A stretch of 7,336 bases of DNA from JBHIBR01 sp046759145 [NCBI: Nitrospinota bacterium]. Its GTDB lineage: Bacteria > UBA8248. The position numbers were made by a program, and so were the translations under genes. Numbering within the stretch: position 1 is the first letter of the stretch; each line of letters starts with the position of its first letter. Where the stretch lies: assembly GCA_046759145.1 (NCBI GenBank), contig JBHIBR010000086.1, forward strand, positions 1 to 7,336, in the 5' to 3' direction. Of the stretch, positions 1,693-6,949 are shown piece after piece. The notes beneath the pieces were generated by a model that ran no database searches, was not told the origin of the DNA, and was given only the letters and a program-made list of their open reading frames with translations.

Positions 1693-1702
1693 CCAGGACC
1701 AC

Positions 1703-1740
1703 AAAAACCCGGCACCCCGCCGGGCGGCGGCGGTGCCGGG
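1703..1740 (-). terminator. Rho-independent terminator of the peroxiredoxin-like gene
   Basis: On the minus strand a very stable GC hairpin has outer arms 1732-1740 and 1708-1716 (nine perfect pairs, CCCGGCACC/GGTGCCGGG). Five more inner pairs follow after one bulged base, with a GGGC loop at 1722-1725 (plus-strand reading). The hairpin is followed directly by five T residues (1703-1707). It lies 55 bases after the peroxiredoxin stop codon and isolates that gene from the cluster below. Confidence 0.85.
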
Positions 1741-1795: not shown

Positions 1796-2284
1796 CTACT
1801 TCCTGCTCTTATAAAACTGCACCATCTTCAGCACGTCCTGCCACACAAGCCGGCCGATGGGGCCGGAGCTATAGACGGCGACGGCGATGGTCTTGTCGGG
1901 CTTGAGGACAAAACCCGTGGCCTGGAGGAAGTCGCGGGCCTCTTCGTAGAAGGCGCCGATCTTGGCCACGGTCTCTTTCAGGTCGAGGCCATAGGCCACC
2001 GGGAAGGTGATGCCATGCTCTTTGACCGTCTCCTGGGCCTTCTCGAGGGGGTCCACCGAGGCGGCCACAACGCCGATCCCCTCGTCCTTCAGCTTGCCCG
2101 CCTTCGCAAAGGCAGCCAACTGCGCCTTGCAATAAGGTCACCAGTGGCCTCGGTAGAAGAGCAGAACGTTCCAATCCTCTTTCAGGCCATCGGGGAGCTG
2201 GAGGGTGCCCCCGTCCACGAGGTTGAGGGTCATATCGGGAAAACGGTCGCCGCTGTCGAGGAGGAAAGAGCCCGCGCGCGTCAT
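1796..2284 (-). CDS. AhpC/TSA (peroxiredoxin-like) family protein, probable selenoprotein with in-frame TGA at codon 49
   Basis: Read with TGA as selenocysteine, the frame gives 162 residues with the redoxin fold. An N-terminal segment (GDRFPDMTLNLVDG, about 12-25) leads to LLFYRGHW-U49-PYC52-KAQL, where family members normally read RGHWCPYC. Then come ASVDP, FPVAYGL, TGFVLKPDKT and YSSGPIGRL. The TGA (2138-2140) therefore replaces the first Cys of the CxxC redox motif, giving UxxC, the usual position for selenocysteine in redox enzymes. The start is ATG at 2282-2284, with AAAGGAGGT seven nt upstream, so the 48 codons before the TGA are clearly meant to be translated. An 11-pair hairpin lies just downstream of the TGA. 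Expected role: thiol/selenol-dependent reduction of peroxides or disulfides in the cytoplasm; no signal peptide is seen. The gene is monocistronic, with its own terminator. Alternatives: a pseudogene or a sequencing error (TGC to TGA). A standard gene finder would call only a truncated product starting at TTG 2119. Confidence 0.85.
2105..2131 (-). promoter_or_regulatory. Candidate bacterial SECIS element
   Basis: Directly downstream of the TGA, inside the coding sequence, bases 2131-2125 plus 2123-2120 pair with 2115-2105 to form 11 base pairs (including G-U), with a single bulged C at 2124 and an apical loop of UUGG (2119-2116). The loop begins about 19 nt after the TGA, within the range known for bacterial SECIS elements (roughly 16-37 nt). 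The upper stem is GCAG/CUGC; opening its closing pair gives a GU-starting loop. SECIS elements bind SelB, which delivers Sec-tRNA to the UGA. Folding was done by eye. Confidence 0.65.
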
Positions 2285-2291
2285 GCAGTAG

Positions 2292-2300
2292 ACCTCCTTT
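2292..2300 (-). promoter_or_regulatory. Ribosome binding site deciding the peroxiredoxin start
   Basis: AAAGGAGGT on the minus strand ends seven bases before ATG 2284. This near-consensus site fixes the start 48 codons upstream of the in-frame TGA and argues against initiation at the TTG downstream of it. Confidence 0.8.
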
Positions 2301-2567: not shown

Positions 2568-3554
2568 TCACCTCTTCTTTTTCTTCACGACCTCGCGCAC
2601 CGCGTCTGCGAGCTCGACGTGGGTTAGGCCGAAGTGGGCGAGGAGCGCCTTCGCCTCGCCCGAGACGCCGAAGCGGTCGCGCATGCCGAAGCGCACGAAG
2701 GGGACGGGGCAGTCTTCCATCAGCACCTCGGCCACAGCACCCCCCAGGCCCCCGTAGATGTTGTGCTCCTCGGCGGTCACTATTCCTCCGCTCTCGCGGG
2801 CGGCCTCGGCCAGGGTCTCGCGGTCGATGGGTTTGATGGTCGAGAGGTTCACCACGCCCACCTCGATGCCCTCCCCGGCCAGGAGCTCGGCGGCTTTGAG
2901 GGCCATGCTCACCATGATGCCCGCCGCCACGACCGTCGCGTCGCGTCCTCGGCGCAGGACCCGCGCCTTGCCCAGGGTGAAGGGGCAGGGGTCGGGGTTG
3001 ATGACCGGAAATTTGGCCCGGGCGAGCCGCACGTAGCAGGGCCCGACGCGCTCCGCCACTGCCCGGATGGCGGCGGCCGTCTCGGGCCCATCCGAGGGGA
3101 CGACTACAGTCATGTTGGGGAGAACGCGCATGAGGGCGATGTCCTCGAGCATCTGGTGGCTCGTCCCATCCTCGCCCACGGTGATCCCGGCGTGGGTGGC
3201 CACGATCTTTACGTTCAAGGCGGGGACCGCGATGGACTGGCGCACCGACTCCCAGGCGCGGCCTGTGGCGAAGATGGCGAAGCTGCTCGCGAAGACCACC
3301 TTGCCCGTCGAGGCGAGGCCCGCGGCGGCGTCCATCATGCCCTGCTCGGCCACCCCCATGTTGAAGAAGCGATGGGGGAATTTCTTGGCGAAGTAGACGG
3401 TGCGGGTGGAGCCGCTGAGGTCTGCGTCCAGCACCACGATGTCCTCGCGCTCCTCGCCCAGCTGCGCCAGGGTCTTGCCGTAGACGTCCCGGATGGCGAC
3501 CTCTTGGGGCTTCTCGGCCGCGGCGGTTGGGGCAGAAGGGCCGGGCTCTGCCAT
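2568..3554 (-). CDS. Transketolase, C-terminal subunit
   Basis: This 328-aa protein carries the pyrimidine-binding and C-terminal domains of a split transketolase. Recognised parts: VLDADLSGST (41-50), FFNMGVAEQGMMDAAAGLA (63-81) with E70 as the likely glutamate that activates thiamine diphosphate, FASSFAIF (88-95), and HAGITVGEDGTSHQMLEDIALMR (121-143). A C-terminal domain ends with EEHNIYGGLGGAVAEV and a Lys-rich tail (KKKKR). With the N-subunit it should transfer two-carbon ketol units between sugar phosphates in the cytoplasm, linking pentose phosphates to glycolysis; assignment to a specialised sugar pathway cannot be excluded. The first 18 residues are Ala/Pro-rich and probably disordered. 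ATG at 3552-3554 follows a GAGG, 12 bp after the N-subunit stop, so the two genes form an operon. Length and motifs are complete. Confidence 0.92.
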   Translation of the reverse strand: MAEPGPSAPTAAAEKPQEVAIRDVYGKTLAQLGEEREDIVVLDADLSGSTRTVYFAKKFPHRFFNMGVAEQGMMDAAAGLASTGKVVFASSFAIFATGRAWESVRQSIAVPALNVKIVATHAGITVGEDGTSHQMLEDIALMRVLPNMTVVVPSDGPETAAAIRAVAERVGPCYVRLARAKFPVINPDPCPFTLGKARVLRRGRDATVVAAGIMVSMALKAAELLAGEGIEVGVVNLSTIKPIDRETLAEAARESGGIVTAEEHNIYGGLGGAVAEVLMEDCPVPFVRFGMRDRFGVSGEAKALLAHFGLTHVELADAVREVVKKKKR

Positions 3555-3566
3555 GCGCTCCTCTCC

Positions 3567-4525
3567 CTACCTCTCCCCGAGCTGGCGAAGCGCCTCGGCC
3601 AGCTCCTCGTCGTTGGGGGCGATGCCGTGCCAGTTGGGGGTGTTCTCCATGAAGTCCACCCCCTTGCCCTTCACAGTGCGGGCGACGCCCACGCCAGCGC
3701 CTCGAGCACCTGGGCGATGTCGTGCCCGTCCACCTCCCGCACCGCCCACCGGTGGGCGCGCCACTTGTCGGGGAGGGGGTCCAAGTCGATGGTCTCCTTC
3801 ACGTAGCCGTCGAGCTGGACGCCGTTGAAGTCCAGGATGCCCGTGAGGTTCTCCAGCTTGTAGTGGGCGGCCGACATGGCGGCCTCCCAGGTGGAGCCCT
3901 CCTGGCACTCCCCGTCGCTGATGAGGCAATAGACCCGAGAGGGCCGCCCGTCGAGCCTAAGGCCCAGGGCAAGCCCCACCGACTGGGCGAGGCCGTGGCC
4001 GAGGGAGCCGGTGCAGACCTCCACCCCGGGGGTCATGCGGCTGTGGCAGTGGCCCTCGAGGATGCCCCCCACCTTGCGCAGGCGGTTCAGCTCGTCGGGG
4101 TCGAAGTAGCCGAACTGGGCCAGGATAGTGTAAAGCGCGGGGCAGCCGTGCCCTTTCGAGAGGACGAAGCGGTCGCGGTCGGGCCAGGCCAGGTCCTCGG
4201 GGCGGTGGCGGAGCTTCCCGTAGTAGAGGGCCACCAGGATCTCCGTCGCCGAGAAGGAGCCGCCCGGGTGGCCCGCCTGGGCCTTGTGGATCGCCTTGAT
4301 GGTGGTGACGCGGGTCTGTCGGGCGACCTCCTTGAGGGTCTCGAGGAGGGCCTGGGCGCCTTCCCAGGAGTCGATGTCGAAGGCATCGGCCCGGAGGTCC
4401 ACCGGGGGTCCACCGCGGGAGTGGTATTTCTCCCAGGGGCGGGATGCGACGAAGAGCAGCCGCTCCGCAATCCGGGCGCGCGTCTTGCGAGAGATCAATT
4501 TCAGCGTGCCAGCTTCCAGGGCCAT
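3567..4525 (-). CDS. Transketolase, N-terminal subunit, with apparent frameshift near the 3' end
   Basis: This is the thiamine-diphosphate pyrophosphate-binding subunit. Numbered from the chosen start, it shows GHPGG (85-89), SKGH (123-126), GSLGHGLAQ (from 173), the metal-binding SDGE (203-206) with N234 closing the GDG-x(n)-N motif, and DGHD (267-270). The frame then reaches TGA at 3671-3673. The family's conserved end, [14 protein letters not shown] followed by [15 protein letters not shown], is found in another frame and stops at 3567. Around 3675-3695 about ten codons expected in the family are missing and the frame is shifted, so a deletion or an assembly error is likely; the entry spans both parts. 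ATG 4523-4525 is preferred to the GTG at 4588, because AGGGGGAGG stands just before it and the GTG has none. Even so, about 60 residues precede usual family homology. The C-subunit follows 12 bp later. Confidence 0.85.
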
Positions 4526-4540
4526 CCTCCCCCTCCCCAG
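4526..4540 (-). promoter_or_regulatory. Purine-rich ribosome binding region deciding the transketolase N-subunit start
   Basis: The minus strand reads CTGGGGAGGGGGAGG directly before ATG 4525. The first GGGGAGG lies six bases from the ATG, an ideal distance, and favours this start over the in-frame GTG at 4588. Confidence 0.6.
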
Positions 4541-4616
4541 GGTCTCGACGGAAGGAAGCGAGAGCGCCGATTTTTTACCGGCCAGCACAAAAGGCCGACC
4601 CAGCTAAATCTTACCC

Positions 4617-4639: not shown

Positions 4640-4668
4640 TGTCAGTCCGAGCGTAGCGAAGAATCTCC
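4640..4668. repeat. Dispersed repeat-like unit (copy B) overlapping the TPR gene end
   Basis: The plus-strand core TCCGAGCG-TAG-CGAAGAATCTC (4646-4667) resembles the minus strand of copy A at 2392-2410. I recall close relatives of this sequence as abundant dispersed elements in environmental bacterial genomes. It encodes the last residues of the TPR protein and supplies its TGA stop. Confidence 0.5.
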
Positions 4669-5937
4669 CGCCCGCCGTCTCTCCAGGACTTCGAGCCAGC
4701 GCTCGAGCTCCCCAATCACCCGCGCGCGGCTCTCGGCGTCGAGGGGGACCATATCTGCCCCCTCCATCCCCTCTTCCCCCGGCTCGCCAGGGGCGCCCAC
4801 TCCGACCTCTCCCGCCGGCACCTCGCCCGGGGCGACGCGGGCGAGCTCCCACTCGAGCGCCTCCATCCGGGCGGCCAGCGCGGGGCTCTCAGGGTGCAAT
4901 GAGCGCGCCCTTTTGTAAAGGTCCAGGGCGCGGTCCACCAGGCCGTCCTGGATGTAAAGGTTGGCGAGCGCCTCCACCGTGGCCTCGAACTCGGCCTCTA
5001 GGGCTACCCCTTCCGCCTTCTCCTCGGGAGCCGAGGGGGGCGGGGCCACAGGTCCTTCCTCTGCGTCCCGGGAGACAGGAATGGTCTCCAACCCGGGGAG
5101 GCCGACTCCCTCCTCCCCTTCAGCCTCAAGGGCTGGCGGGGCCTCCAGCTCCTCCTCCAATACGCTTTCCACCTCGCCAGCGGGCCCGAGGGGAGATTCC
5201 GCCTCCCCTGCGACCAAGAGGCTCTCCAGGGCCACCGCATCTTCCACCCCCGCACCCGGTCCAGGGGAAATCCCCTCCAGCTCCCCTCCGACGGCCGCCC
5301 CTTCCAGTTCCTCCAGGCGCGCCCTGTAGCGTTCGTTAGCGGGCTCCCGCTCGAGGAGCCTCTCATAGACGCCCATAGCCTCAGCAACGTGTCCCTGTCG
5401 GACATAAAGCTCCGCGAGCGCTTCGGTGGGCAGGGGCTCCCCGGCCGGCGGCTCGGCCCCCTCGGCGACCTCGGCCGCATCGGCAACCCCGGTCGCACCG
5501 GCGACCCCGGTCTCAGCGAGCCCCTCCGGGGGAGGCAGGGCAAGGGGGGCAAGGGTGGAGGCCCCGGGCTCAAGGAGGGCCAGCCTATCGGCGGCCAGGG
5601 CCGCCCGCCCCTCATCCCCCGCCCGTTCGTAGCAGCGGGCGAGCAGGCGCCGGGCGGCCAAGTTGAGAGGGGCCAGCCTCACCGCCCGCCCGAGCTCGGC
5701 CTGCGCCTCCTCCCACCGGTCGCTCTCGGCCAGGAGCGCCCCCAGGGCCGCCCCGGCTTCGGCGAAAAGCGGTTGGACCTCCAGGCCCCTGCGGAGGATC
5801 CCCTCCGCACGATCGGGCATCCCCGCCCGCCGGTAGAGCCGGGCGAGCGCGAGGAAGAGAGGCGATTGGGGATTTTGCTCGAGGAGGCGGGTGTACTCGT
5901 CTATGAGGCGGGCCTCATCCGCAGGCCGGCGTGCCAT
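4642..5937 (-). CDS. Tetratricopeptide-repeat protein with long acidic/proline linkers
   Basis: This 431-aa protein has an N-terminal block of TPR units (about 8-125: LIDEYTRLLEQNPQSPLFLALARLY, then RAEGILRRGLEVQP, then EEAQAELGRAVRLAP). A fourth unit follows at about 170-213 (LAELYVRQGHVAEAMGVYERLLEREP) and a fifth at about 320-365 (LANLYIQDGLVDRALDLYKRARSLHP). Linkers at 126-169, 214-318 and 368-400 are rich in Ala, Glu, Pro and Gly and likely disordered. A final amphipathic helix (VIGELERWLEVLERRR, 407-422) is typical of this protein type. TPRs mediate protein-protein contacts; the partner is unknown. There is no signal peptide, so it is probably cytoplasmic. The ATG follows GAGAGGG at five bases. 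The last residues (GDSSLRSD) come from a repeat element and look foreign to the family. It is transcribed divergently from the beta-propeller gene. Confidence 0.82.
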   Translation of the reverse strand: MARRPADEARLIDEYTRLLEQNPQSPLFLALARLYRRAGMPDRAEGILRRGLEVQPLFAEAGAALGALLAESDRWEEAQAELGRAVRLAPLNLAARRLLARCYERAGDEGRAALAADRLALLEPGASTLAPLALPPPEGLAETGVAGATGVADAAEVAEGAEPPAGEPLPTEALAELYVRQGHVAEAMGVYERLLEREPANERYRARLEELEGAAVGGELEGISPGPGAGVEDAVALESLLVAGEAESPLGPAGEVESVLEEELEAPPALEAEGEEGVGLPGLETIPVSRDAEEGPVAPPPSAPEEKAEGVALEAEFEATVEALANLYIQDGLVDRALDLYKRARSLHPESPALAARMEALEWELARVAPGEVPAGEVGVGAPGEPGEEGMEGADMVPLDAESRARVIGELERWLEVLERRRAGDSSLRSD

Positions 5938-6154
5938 GAAGCCCTCTCGGGGCGGAGAACATCGGCGATCCCTCCCGCCTCACGCTAGCAGACTCCCCGG
6001 CACCGCGCAAGCAGCTCCCGGCGCCGTCTCGAAGGGGTACCCGGCAGTAAAGGGGGCCCGCCCTGCACTGAGTAAGGGGCCCTTGGCGGGAGGCCCTCCA
6101 TCCCCCATACTAGGGGAGTCCTCCCCAGCCGCGTTTCAACCCAGAGGTCGTTCG
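5938..6154. other. Divergent intergenic region
   Basis: These 217 bases separate the minus-strand TPR gene from the plus-strand beta-propeller gene and must hold promoters for both. No clear -35/-10 pair is visible. CCCGCC (6058-6063) can pair with GGCGGG (6085-6090), and AAGGGGCCCTT (6074-6084) repeats the palindrome core seen at 1680-1690. A plus-strand frame is open through the region but is proline/glycine-rich with no Shine-Dalgarno and is not taken as coding. Confidence 0.4.
6143..6147 (+). promoter_or_regulatory. Ribosome binding site for a TTG start
   Basis: AGAGG ends seven bases before TTG 6155. It decides the start of the beta-propeller gene: the first in-frame ATG downstream (6194) lies inside the hydrophobic signal segment and has no such site. 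Confidence 0.6.
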
Positions 6155-6949
6155 TTGCGGAACTCCGCCCGCTTCCTTTTCTTTCTCCTGCTGATGGGGT
6201 TCCTACTGCCTGCGCGATCTCTCTCCGGGCGAGCCTTGGAGGCCGAGGGCGGGGAGCGAGCCCCTTACAGGACTTTTCCTCTCTCTGTGGCGGAGCCATC
6301 GGGCCTCGCCTACGACCCCGAGCGGGACGCCCTCTGGGTGGTCTCGGACGAGGGCGGCTTCGGCCTCATCTCGAAGGAGGGAAAGCTACTGGAGTGGCAC
6401 GAGCTGGAAGGAGACCTGGAGGGTGTGGCGCTGGACGCGCGCCGAGGGGTCCTCTACATCGCCGAGGAGCAGACGCGCACCCTCTTCCGCATCCACCTCA
6501 CGAGTGGCAGGCGCCAGGCGCTGCGCCTCAAGCTGGAGGGCTACCGGGGCCCCGACAACCGGGGGGCAGAGGGGCTCGCCCTCGACCCGGAGAGGGGCCA
6601 CATCTTCGTCGCCAAGGAGCGGCAGCCCCACTTCACCCTCGAGCTCGACGGCGAGGGCCGGAGGGTGAGGCGGTTTGAGGTCCCCACGGTGGAGGATATC
6701 ACGGGCCTTTGCTACGATGCGGTCGGGCGGAGGCTGCTGATTTTGAGCCGCGGCTCGAAGCAGGTGATCGCTCTCTCGCGGGAGGGGAAGCCCCTGGGCA
6801 CCGTGCTCCGCCTCGACTTCCGGGGCGCCGAGGGGATCGCCCTGGACCCGAAGGGCCGGGTGTACATCGCGGTGGATAACAATCTGCCTTGGGGGAACTA
6901 CATGGCCGTCTTCCCAGAGCTCCTGTCGGAGGGGAGGCCATCGCCGTGA
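6155..6949 (+). CDS. SdiA-regulated/YjiK-type secreted beta-propeller protein
   Basis: This 264-aa protein begins with a signal peptide: basic RNSAR, then a hydrophobic core FLFFLLLMGFLLPA (about 7-20) and a likely cleavage region near residues 22-30. The mature part has five evenly spaced repeats of the form GLAYDPERDALWVVSDEG (about 50-67, 90-106, 140-156, 184-200, 227-243), each a blade of a beta-propeller. Family members (SdiA-regulated, YjiK) are periplasmic or secreted; their ligands are poorly known and an esterase-like or calcium-binding role is only suggested. The TTG at 6155 is the start, because AGAGG precedes it and the full signal peptide is then included. The C-terminus ends on a proline-serine tail. 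The stop overlaps the next gene's GTG (GTGA at 6946-6949), so the two are translationally coupled. Confidence 0.75.
   Translation: MRNSARFLFFLLLMGFLLPARSLSGRALEAEGGERAPYRTFPLSVAEPSGLAYDPERDALWVVSDEGGFGLISKEGKLLEWHELEGDLEGVALDARRGVLYIAEEQTRTLFRIHLTSGRRQALRLKLEGYRGPDNRGAEGLALDPERGHIFVAKERQPHFTLELDGEGRRVRRFEVPTVEDITGLCYDAVGRRLLILSRGSKQVIALSREGKPLGTVLRLDFRGAEGIALDPKGRVYIAVDNNLPWGNYMAVFPELLSEGRPSP

What the first reader, a model, noticed from the sequence alone, without database searches (positions are those of the whole stretch)
1796..2284. Peroxiredoxin-like selenoprotein hidden by an in-frame TGA at the active site
Seen directly: one frame runs from an ATG with a near-perfect Shine-Dalgarno, through 48 codons of redoxin N-terminus, to TGA, and goes on without another stop to a complete redoxin C-terminus. 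The TGA falls exactly where the family has the first Cys of CPYC. Established knowledge: selenocysteine replaces catalytic Cys in UxxC redox motifs in several AhpC/TSA-like proteins. Standard annotation would give a 107-aa fragment starting at TTG and miss the active site.
Basis: partly seen in the sequence, partly recalled or inferred. Interest (0 to 1): 0.85.

Follow-up and report, generated by a model that had tools for sequence, protein, structure and literature searches.

The report
Selenocysteine version of a small redoxin
This bacterial gene encodes a small redox enzyme whose active-site stop codon (TGA) is very probably read as the rare amino acid selenocysteine, because 20 relatives in other genomes carry the same codon at the same place; it is a real gene that routine annotation would cut short, but it belongs to an already known kind of selenoprotein.

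Summary
On the minus strand, 2284-1796 is one frame of 162 codons plus TAG, with a single in-frame TGA at 2140-2138, codon 49. Seven Cys relatives, 43-48% identical, align across the TGA with Cys at column 49.

Decisive evidence: in 385 genomes of one class, 32 hold a relative at E<=1e-20; 20 of these carry exactly one TGA, always at this codon. All 20 have selA and selB above cut-off; of the other 12 only 1 does. Two phylum-wide samples gave no TGA form. The RNA after the TGA has a covarying hairpin, although single-sequence folding shows it as best fold in only 10 of 20 relatives and not in the window.

Verdict: a UxxC peroxiredoxin-like selenoprotein, a new member of a known kind (PMC1088965, PMC2398784, PMC13188914). 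The window's own genome is not held, so its Sec machinery is untested. The window protein groups with the Cys clade, not the other Sec forms (AU p 0.0065), which fits ancestral Sec with a later change to Cys.

The parts
1796..2284 (-). Redoxin (PF00578) selenoprotein gene, 162 aa, U49-P-Y-C52
2138..2140 (-). In-frame TGA, codon 49, read as Sec
   Evidence: same codon in 20 relatives
2099..2140 (-). Putative bacterial SECIS hairpin; CAGUUGG core shared with 18 of 20 TGA-bearing relatives (the other 2 read CAGUUAG)
   Evidence: against:
2129..2131 (-). TGC, C52, presumed resolving Cys of UxxC
2293..2298 (-). AGGAGG ribosome binding site, 8 nt before ATG
   Evidence: read directly
1701..1740 (-). 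Terminator-like hairpin with a T run, 55 nt after the stop codon
   Evidence: 2 such sites in the 1 kb scanned, shuffles mean 1.1, so not above chance by count; longer stem read

Best explanation
A gene, probably transcribed alone, encodes a peroxiredoxin-like oxidoreductase with a Sec-Pro-Tyr-Cys active centre. Shown: the reading frame, the TGA column shared with 20 relatives, a covarying hairpin right after it in the family, and co-occurrence with the Sec machinery in those relatives. Inferred: in its own host, SelB bound to the hairpin brings Sec-tRNA(Sec) to the UGA; the selenolate of U49 attacks a peroxide or disulfide, C52 resolves it, and a thioredoxin- or glutathione-type donor recycles it.
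For: 1. Full-length homology across the TGA. 2. 20 of the 32 relatives found in 385 genomes carry exactly one TGA, all in the motif W-U-P-[YF]-C. 3. selB and selA over cut-off in 20 of 20 TGA genomes and 1 of 12 non-TGA genomes; selD over cut-off in 19 of 20 and 1 of 12; tRNA-Sec at 66 bits or more in 19 of 20 and 1 of 12, all other listed scores being under 53 bits (the split at 66 is mine). 4. In 7 of 20 the redoxin gene lies on the same contig as selA and selB, within about 8 kb (G767, G838, G684, G596, G836, G765, G505). 5. Hairpin pairs over the 21 sequences: 94% of cells paired, covariation score 0.348 against 0.146 shuffled (0 of 500) and at most 0.087 when slid (related sequences can beat the shuffles without structure, as the tool warns). 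6. A model built from the 20 relatives alone finds the window hairpin at 15.6 bits, E 0.0027 (rough); best of 8 Cys loci 6.9 bits, E 1.1. 7. The Leu codon in the hairpin loop is TTG or TTA in 20 of 20 Sec relatives and TTG in the window, against 37 of 248 at their other Leu codons and 0 of 6 in Cys relatives with Leu there. 8. 0 of 2000 synonymous recodings fold as well at 38 nt, and 0 of 2000 at 40 nt. 9. Three neighbouring genes with Pfam matches end in TGA, so TGA is a normal stop in this organism.
Against: The window's genome is not held, and no sel gene was seen among the window genes that I scanned. With 45 nt the synonymous test weakens (57 of 2000). A 51-nt stretch starting one base upstream of the TGA folds otherwise and is unremarkable (z -0.85, 37 of 200 shuffles as good); at 55 and 60 nt the best fold also lacks the hairpin. 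The window's best fold at 38-48 nt has loop UUGG, which fails the 'G in the first two loop positions' rule of PMC13188914; the family-like AGUUG loop, which meets it, costs 2.6 kcal/mol more. In the relatives the consensus hairpin is part of the best single-sequence fold in 10 of 20. Phylum-wide samples gave no TGA form: 0 of 299 and 0 of 398. A neighbouring gene is split across frames, so base errors in this contig are possible. No Rfam family reached its gathering score, and the one match in the lax search looks like a chance one (E 2.2, far below its gathering score).
Confidence: 0.93

Rival explanations
1. Sequencing or assembly error: the true codon is TGC or TGT and this is an ordinary Cys redoxin.
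For: Cys relatives exist at 43-48% identity, the protein groups with the Cys clade, and a neighbouring transketolase gene is split over two frames.
Against: The base error would have to fall on the one codon that is TGA in 20 relatives; at other codons of this gene 50 single-base changes make a stop and only 5 of them make TGA. The hairpin match and its TTG codon would be unexplained.
Confidence: 0.04
2. Young pseudogene or relic: the host has lost the Sec machinery, so the TGA now stops translation.
For: The window genome cannot be searched for sel genes.
Against: Frame intact, good ribosome site, similar codon pattern on both sides, hairpin recognisable, and a short end branch of 0.072 in the tree.
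Confidence: 0.03
3. TGA is reassigned to an ordinary amino acid throughout the genome.
For: An open frame across TGA.
Against: Three neighbouring genes with Pfam matches end in TGA, and the column is Cys in all 7 relatives of A1, not Trp or Gly.
Confidence: 0.005

Closest known systems
Prx-like UxxC selenoproteins (Sargasso Sea 'Prx-like', PMC1088965, passages seen; GOS 'Prx-like 1', PMC2398784, passages seen; 'Prx-like thiol:disulfide oxidoreductase', PF00578, PMC13188914, section 5, part 1 of 3 of section 7 and passages seen)
   Same: PF00578 domain, UxxC in place of the TxxU of Sec peroxiredoxins, Cys homologues known.
   Different: I did not have their sequences to compare with, so which published subfamily this is stays open. 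The window copy lies beside the Cys clade in the tree.
Cys redoxins on plasmids of Deinococcus, Agrobacterium, Lichenihabitans, Mycobacterium and Mycobacteroides ('peroxiredoxin family protein' or 'redoxin domain-containing protein')
   Same: 43-46% identity over the full length, same CP[YF]C motif.
   Different: TGC at the site in the five intact copies read; best hairpin-model score of any of the 8 Cys loci 6.9 bits.
SelL-related redox protein (NF040769) and PrxU (NF040737)
   Same: Distant similarity.
   Different: 30.9 bits against a cut-off of 120, and 25.9 against 270.

Membership tests
Bacterial selenoprotein gene | In-frame UGA with homology on both sides, aligned to Cys or Sec of relatives | tested here: met
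Bacterial selenoprotein gene | SECIS model of PMC13188914 (loop 3-9 nt, upper stem 4-16 bp, G in first two loop positions, 16-37 nt from UGA, at most -7.5 kcal/mol) | tested here: inconclusive
   Best fold at 38-48 nt (-14.7 to -17.3) meets loop length, spacing and energy but not the G rule; the family-like fold (loop AGUUG, 16 nt from UGA, -10.6 to -14.7 for 36-46 nt, two bulged U) meets the G rule but is not the minimum; at 55 and 60 nt another fold is best
Bacterial selenoprotein gene | selA, selB, selC, selD in the same genome | not testable with these tools
   No genome held for the window; in relatives
Bacterial selenoprotein gene | Selenium in the purified protein | not testable with these tools
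   needs mass spectrometry or 75Se labelling
Prx-like UxxC selenoprotein (PF00578) | PF00578 above its cut-off | tested here: met
   73.5 bits, cut-off 26
Prx-like UxxC selenoprotein (PF00578) | UxxC active centre | tested here: met
   U49-P-Y-C52
Classical Sec peroxiredoxin (TxxU) | Thr three residues before the catalytic Sec | tested here: not met
   U49 aligns with that Thr and C52 with the peroxidatic Cys (alignments to 5xbs and 7kuu)
SelL-related (NF040769) | Score above curated cut-off | tested here: not met
   30.9 against 120
PrxU (NF040737) | Score above curated cut-off | tested here: not met
   25.9 against 270

The most novel reading that the evidence does not exclude
A single clade of all Sec rows is rejected (p-AU 0.0065), and the window shares the SECIS loop core with the other Sec forms. 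An independent gain of Sec in the window lineage is not excluded.
Probability: 0.35. Interest if true: 0.5.

Novelty: new member of a known kind. Interest (0 to 1): 0.4.

Why it matters
It is a clear case of a gene that standard calling truncates to a 107-aa fragment without its active site. The family gives a usable test bed for Sec-to-Cys exchange: comparable Sec and Cys forms exist, the 20 Sec forms found all lie in genomes with selA and selB, and in 7 of those 20 the gene is near them.

Tried and rejected
Searches that led nowhere: viral contigs with P0002, with A1 and with a DNA pattern (none); phages (none); genome contigs with P0002 alone (11 distant relatives, used only as doors to genomes); the motif as a DNA pattern in 398 genomes (0). 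Results that cut against a wide spread: in a phylum-wide sample, 16 of 398 genomes match the Sec alignment and none of the listed matches has an internal stop; with P0002 alone 3 of 299 match, none with a stop inside. In 97 genomes of the phylum of G002 (reached through an archaeal record), 23 match A1 at E<=1e-12, none with a stop inside; the ten that I translated look, by eye, like classical peroxiredoxins.

Structure prediction from the single sequence failed (mean pLDDT 42) and was not used. The window's host was not identified: the best transketolase match in 249 genomes of G001's phylum is 43% identical. Literature: a search for 'upyc' gave noise; 'selenoprotein' with 'Tectomicrobia' gave 0 papers; two other searches gave the listings from which I took papers. 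Term searches within PMC8124441 (no hit for Prx, peroxiredoxin, redoxin, thioredoxin) and PMC12013277 (no hit for Prx-like, peroxiredoxin, redoxin, UxxC) showed nothing on this family. I make no claim that this family is absent from print.

Rows left out of the 38-row tree: the distant rows L001-L011, the archaeal-phylum rows L018 and L024-L033, the duplicate L034 and the broken L015; two of the 12 non-TGA matches (G777, G598) came without a locus; L064-L075 were fetched later.

Mended on checking: linkage distance is about 8 kb; the single-sequence folds of the relatives and the 55-60 nt folds were added as evidence against.

Full report
What is there. The minus strand from 2284 to 1796 reads 48 codons from ATG, then TGA (2140-2138), 113 sense codons and TAG. 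An AGGAGG lies 8 nt before the ATG. A GC-rich hairpin with a T run lies 55 nt after the stop (such sites are not clearly rarer in shuffles, mean 1.1 against 2 found). Upstream is a two-gene transketolase, 283 nt away, so the gene is probably transcribed alone (inference). Three neighbours with Pfam matches (2568-3554, 4642-5937, 5891-6949) end in TGA, so TGA is a normal stop here. No tRNA gene and no Rfam family at gathering score were found in the window.

Is it one protein? PF00578 spans the TGA (residues 12-134, 73.5 bits, cut-off 26). Third-position GC is 0.81 before and 0.86 after the TGA.

Sec relatives. With the Cys alignment plus the window (A1) I searched 385 genomes drawn from the class of G001. 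The tool does not name the class; the record through which G001 was reached is titled 'Proteobacteria bacterium'. 32 genomes match at E<=1e-20; 20 of the 32 rows hold exactly one stop, TGA, and 12 none. In all 20 the TGA is in W-U-P-[YF]-C at the window's column. In two phylum-wide samples no TGA form was found (0 of 398; 0 of 299 with P0002 alone), so the Sec form is patchy, or those samples thin out the right lineages.

Machinery. In the 32 genomes, selB and selA are over their cut-offs in 21, namely all 20 TGA genomes and G001. selD is over cut-off in 20: 19 TGA genomes and G001; G505 misses it. tRNA-Sec scores 66 bits or more in 19 TGA genomes and G001. G826 reaches only 47.5, and every other score listed is under 53; 28 of 32 genomes pass Rfam's gathering score of 47, so that score does not separate the groups, and I take the lower matches to be tRNA-Ser (inference). 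Completeness of these genomes is not told. In 7 of 20 the redoxin gene lies on the same contig as selA and selB within about 8 kb, in G767 less than 1 kb from selA. In G596 it sits between a second UGA gene, deiodinase-like with motif TUPPF, and tRNA-Sec/selB/selA.

Hairpin. Aligning 42 nt from the TGA in 21 sequences (A2) gives a consensus hairpin with loop AGUUG (AGUUA in two relatives) and three pairs with double changes. 94% of cells are paired, and the covariation score is 0.348 against 0.146 (sd 0.032), reached by 0 of 500 shuffles. Two measures are weaker: pairs with double change 20 of 500, further pair types 108 of 500. Single-sequence folding of 40 or 46 nt shows this hairpin in the best fold of 10 of 20 relatives, not in the other 10 and not in the window. 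In the window the lower stem is shifted by a bulged U; the family-like fold costs 2.6 kcal/mol more than the best fold, though on the isolated 20-nt hairpin it is the best fold, at -6.9. A covariance model built without the window finds the window copy as best hit (15.6 bits, rough E 0.0027), against 6.9 bits for the best of 8 Cys loci. Synonymous recodings reach the real energy in 0 of 2000 (38 nt), 0 of 2000 (40 nt) and 57 of 2000 (45 nt). Folding 51 nt starting one base upstream of the TGA shows no excess stability, and at 55-60 nt another fold wins. The Leu codon in the loop is TTR in 20 of 20 Sec relatives and TTG in the window, but TTR in only 37 of 248 of their other Leu codons and in 0 of 6 Cys relatives with Leu there; two more Cys relatives have Val or Met. 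My reading: the comparative signal for a SECIS is good, the thermodynamic one moderate.

How it works. The phmmer alignment to solved peroxiredoxins puts U49 on the Thr of TxxC and C52 on the peroxidatic Cys, matching the description in PMC1088965 (passages seen) of a UXXC motif in place of TXXU. Sec attack followed by Cys resolution is inferred from general knowledge of UxxC and CxxC chemistry; substrate and reductant are unknown.

Evolution. In a 38-row tree the window protein sits on a short branch (0.072) beside 8 Cys proteins (100/99), outside the other Sec forms. Holding all Sec rows as one clade is rejected (p-AU 0.0065; the test assumes that the group was named before the tree was seen, which holds for the Sec label). 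With L052 (Sec) basal in this clade (93/76 for the rest), the simplest reading is ancestral Sec with one change to Cys; an extra gain in the window lineage is the alternative. The root was set at the midpoint, beside a distant HCPxC group, and is not secure.

Known or new. UxxC Prx-like selenoproteins have been described since at least 2005: PMC1088965 (passages), GOS 'Prx-like 1' with 225 sequences in PMC2398784 (passages), and the 2026 inventory in PMC13188914 (section 5, part 1 of 3 of section 7, passages). This is therefore a new member of a known kind; I did not have their sequences to compare with.

Noticed in passing
window 3567-4588, minus: The N-terminal transketolase subunit is split over two frames near 3671-3700 (real frameshift or deletion, or an assembly error).
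   Followed up: partly
L077 5582 to about 6250, minus (G596): A deiodinase-like gene with its own in-frame TGA (motif TUPPF) beside the Sec redoxin and the tRNA-Sec/selB/selA genes.
   Followed up: partly
G749, G662, G820: One selD copy carries one in-frame TGA in these three genomes, which also hold a second selD without TGA.
   Followed up: no
L015 1468-1960 (Deinococcus sp. QL22 plasmid): The redoxin copy has Arg at the first Cys position (WRPFC) and is annotated as two overlapping ORFs; it looks like a decayed Cys form.
   Followed up: no
G001: This genome has selA, selB, selD and a strong tRNA-Sec but the redoxin match found in it is the Cys form.
   Followed up: no
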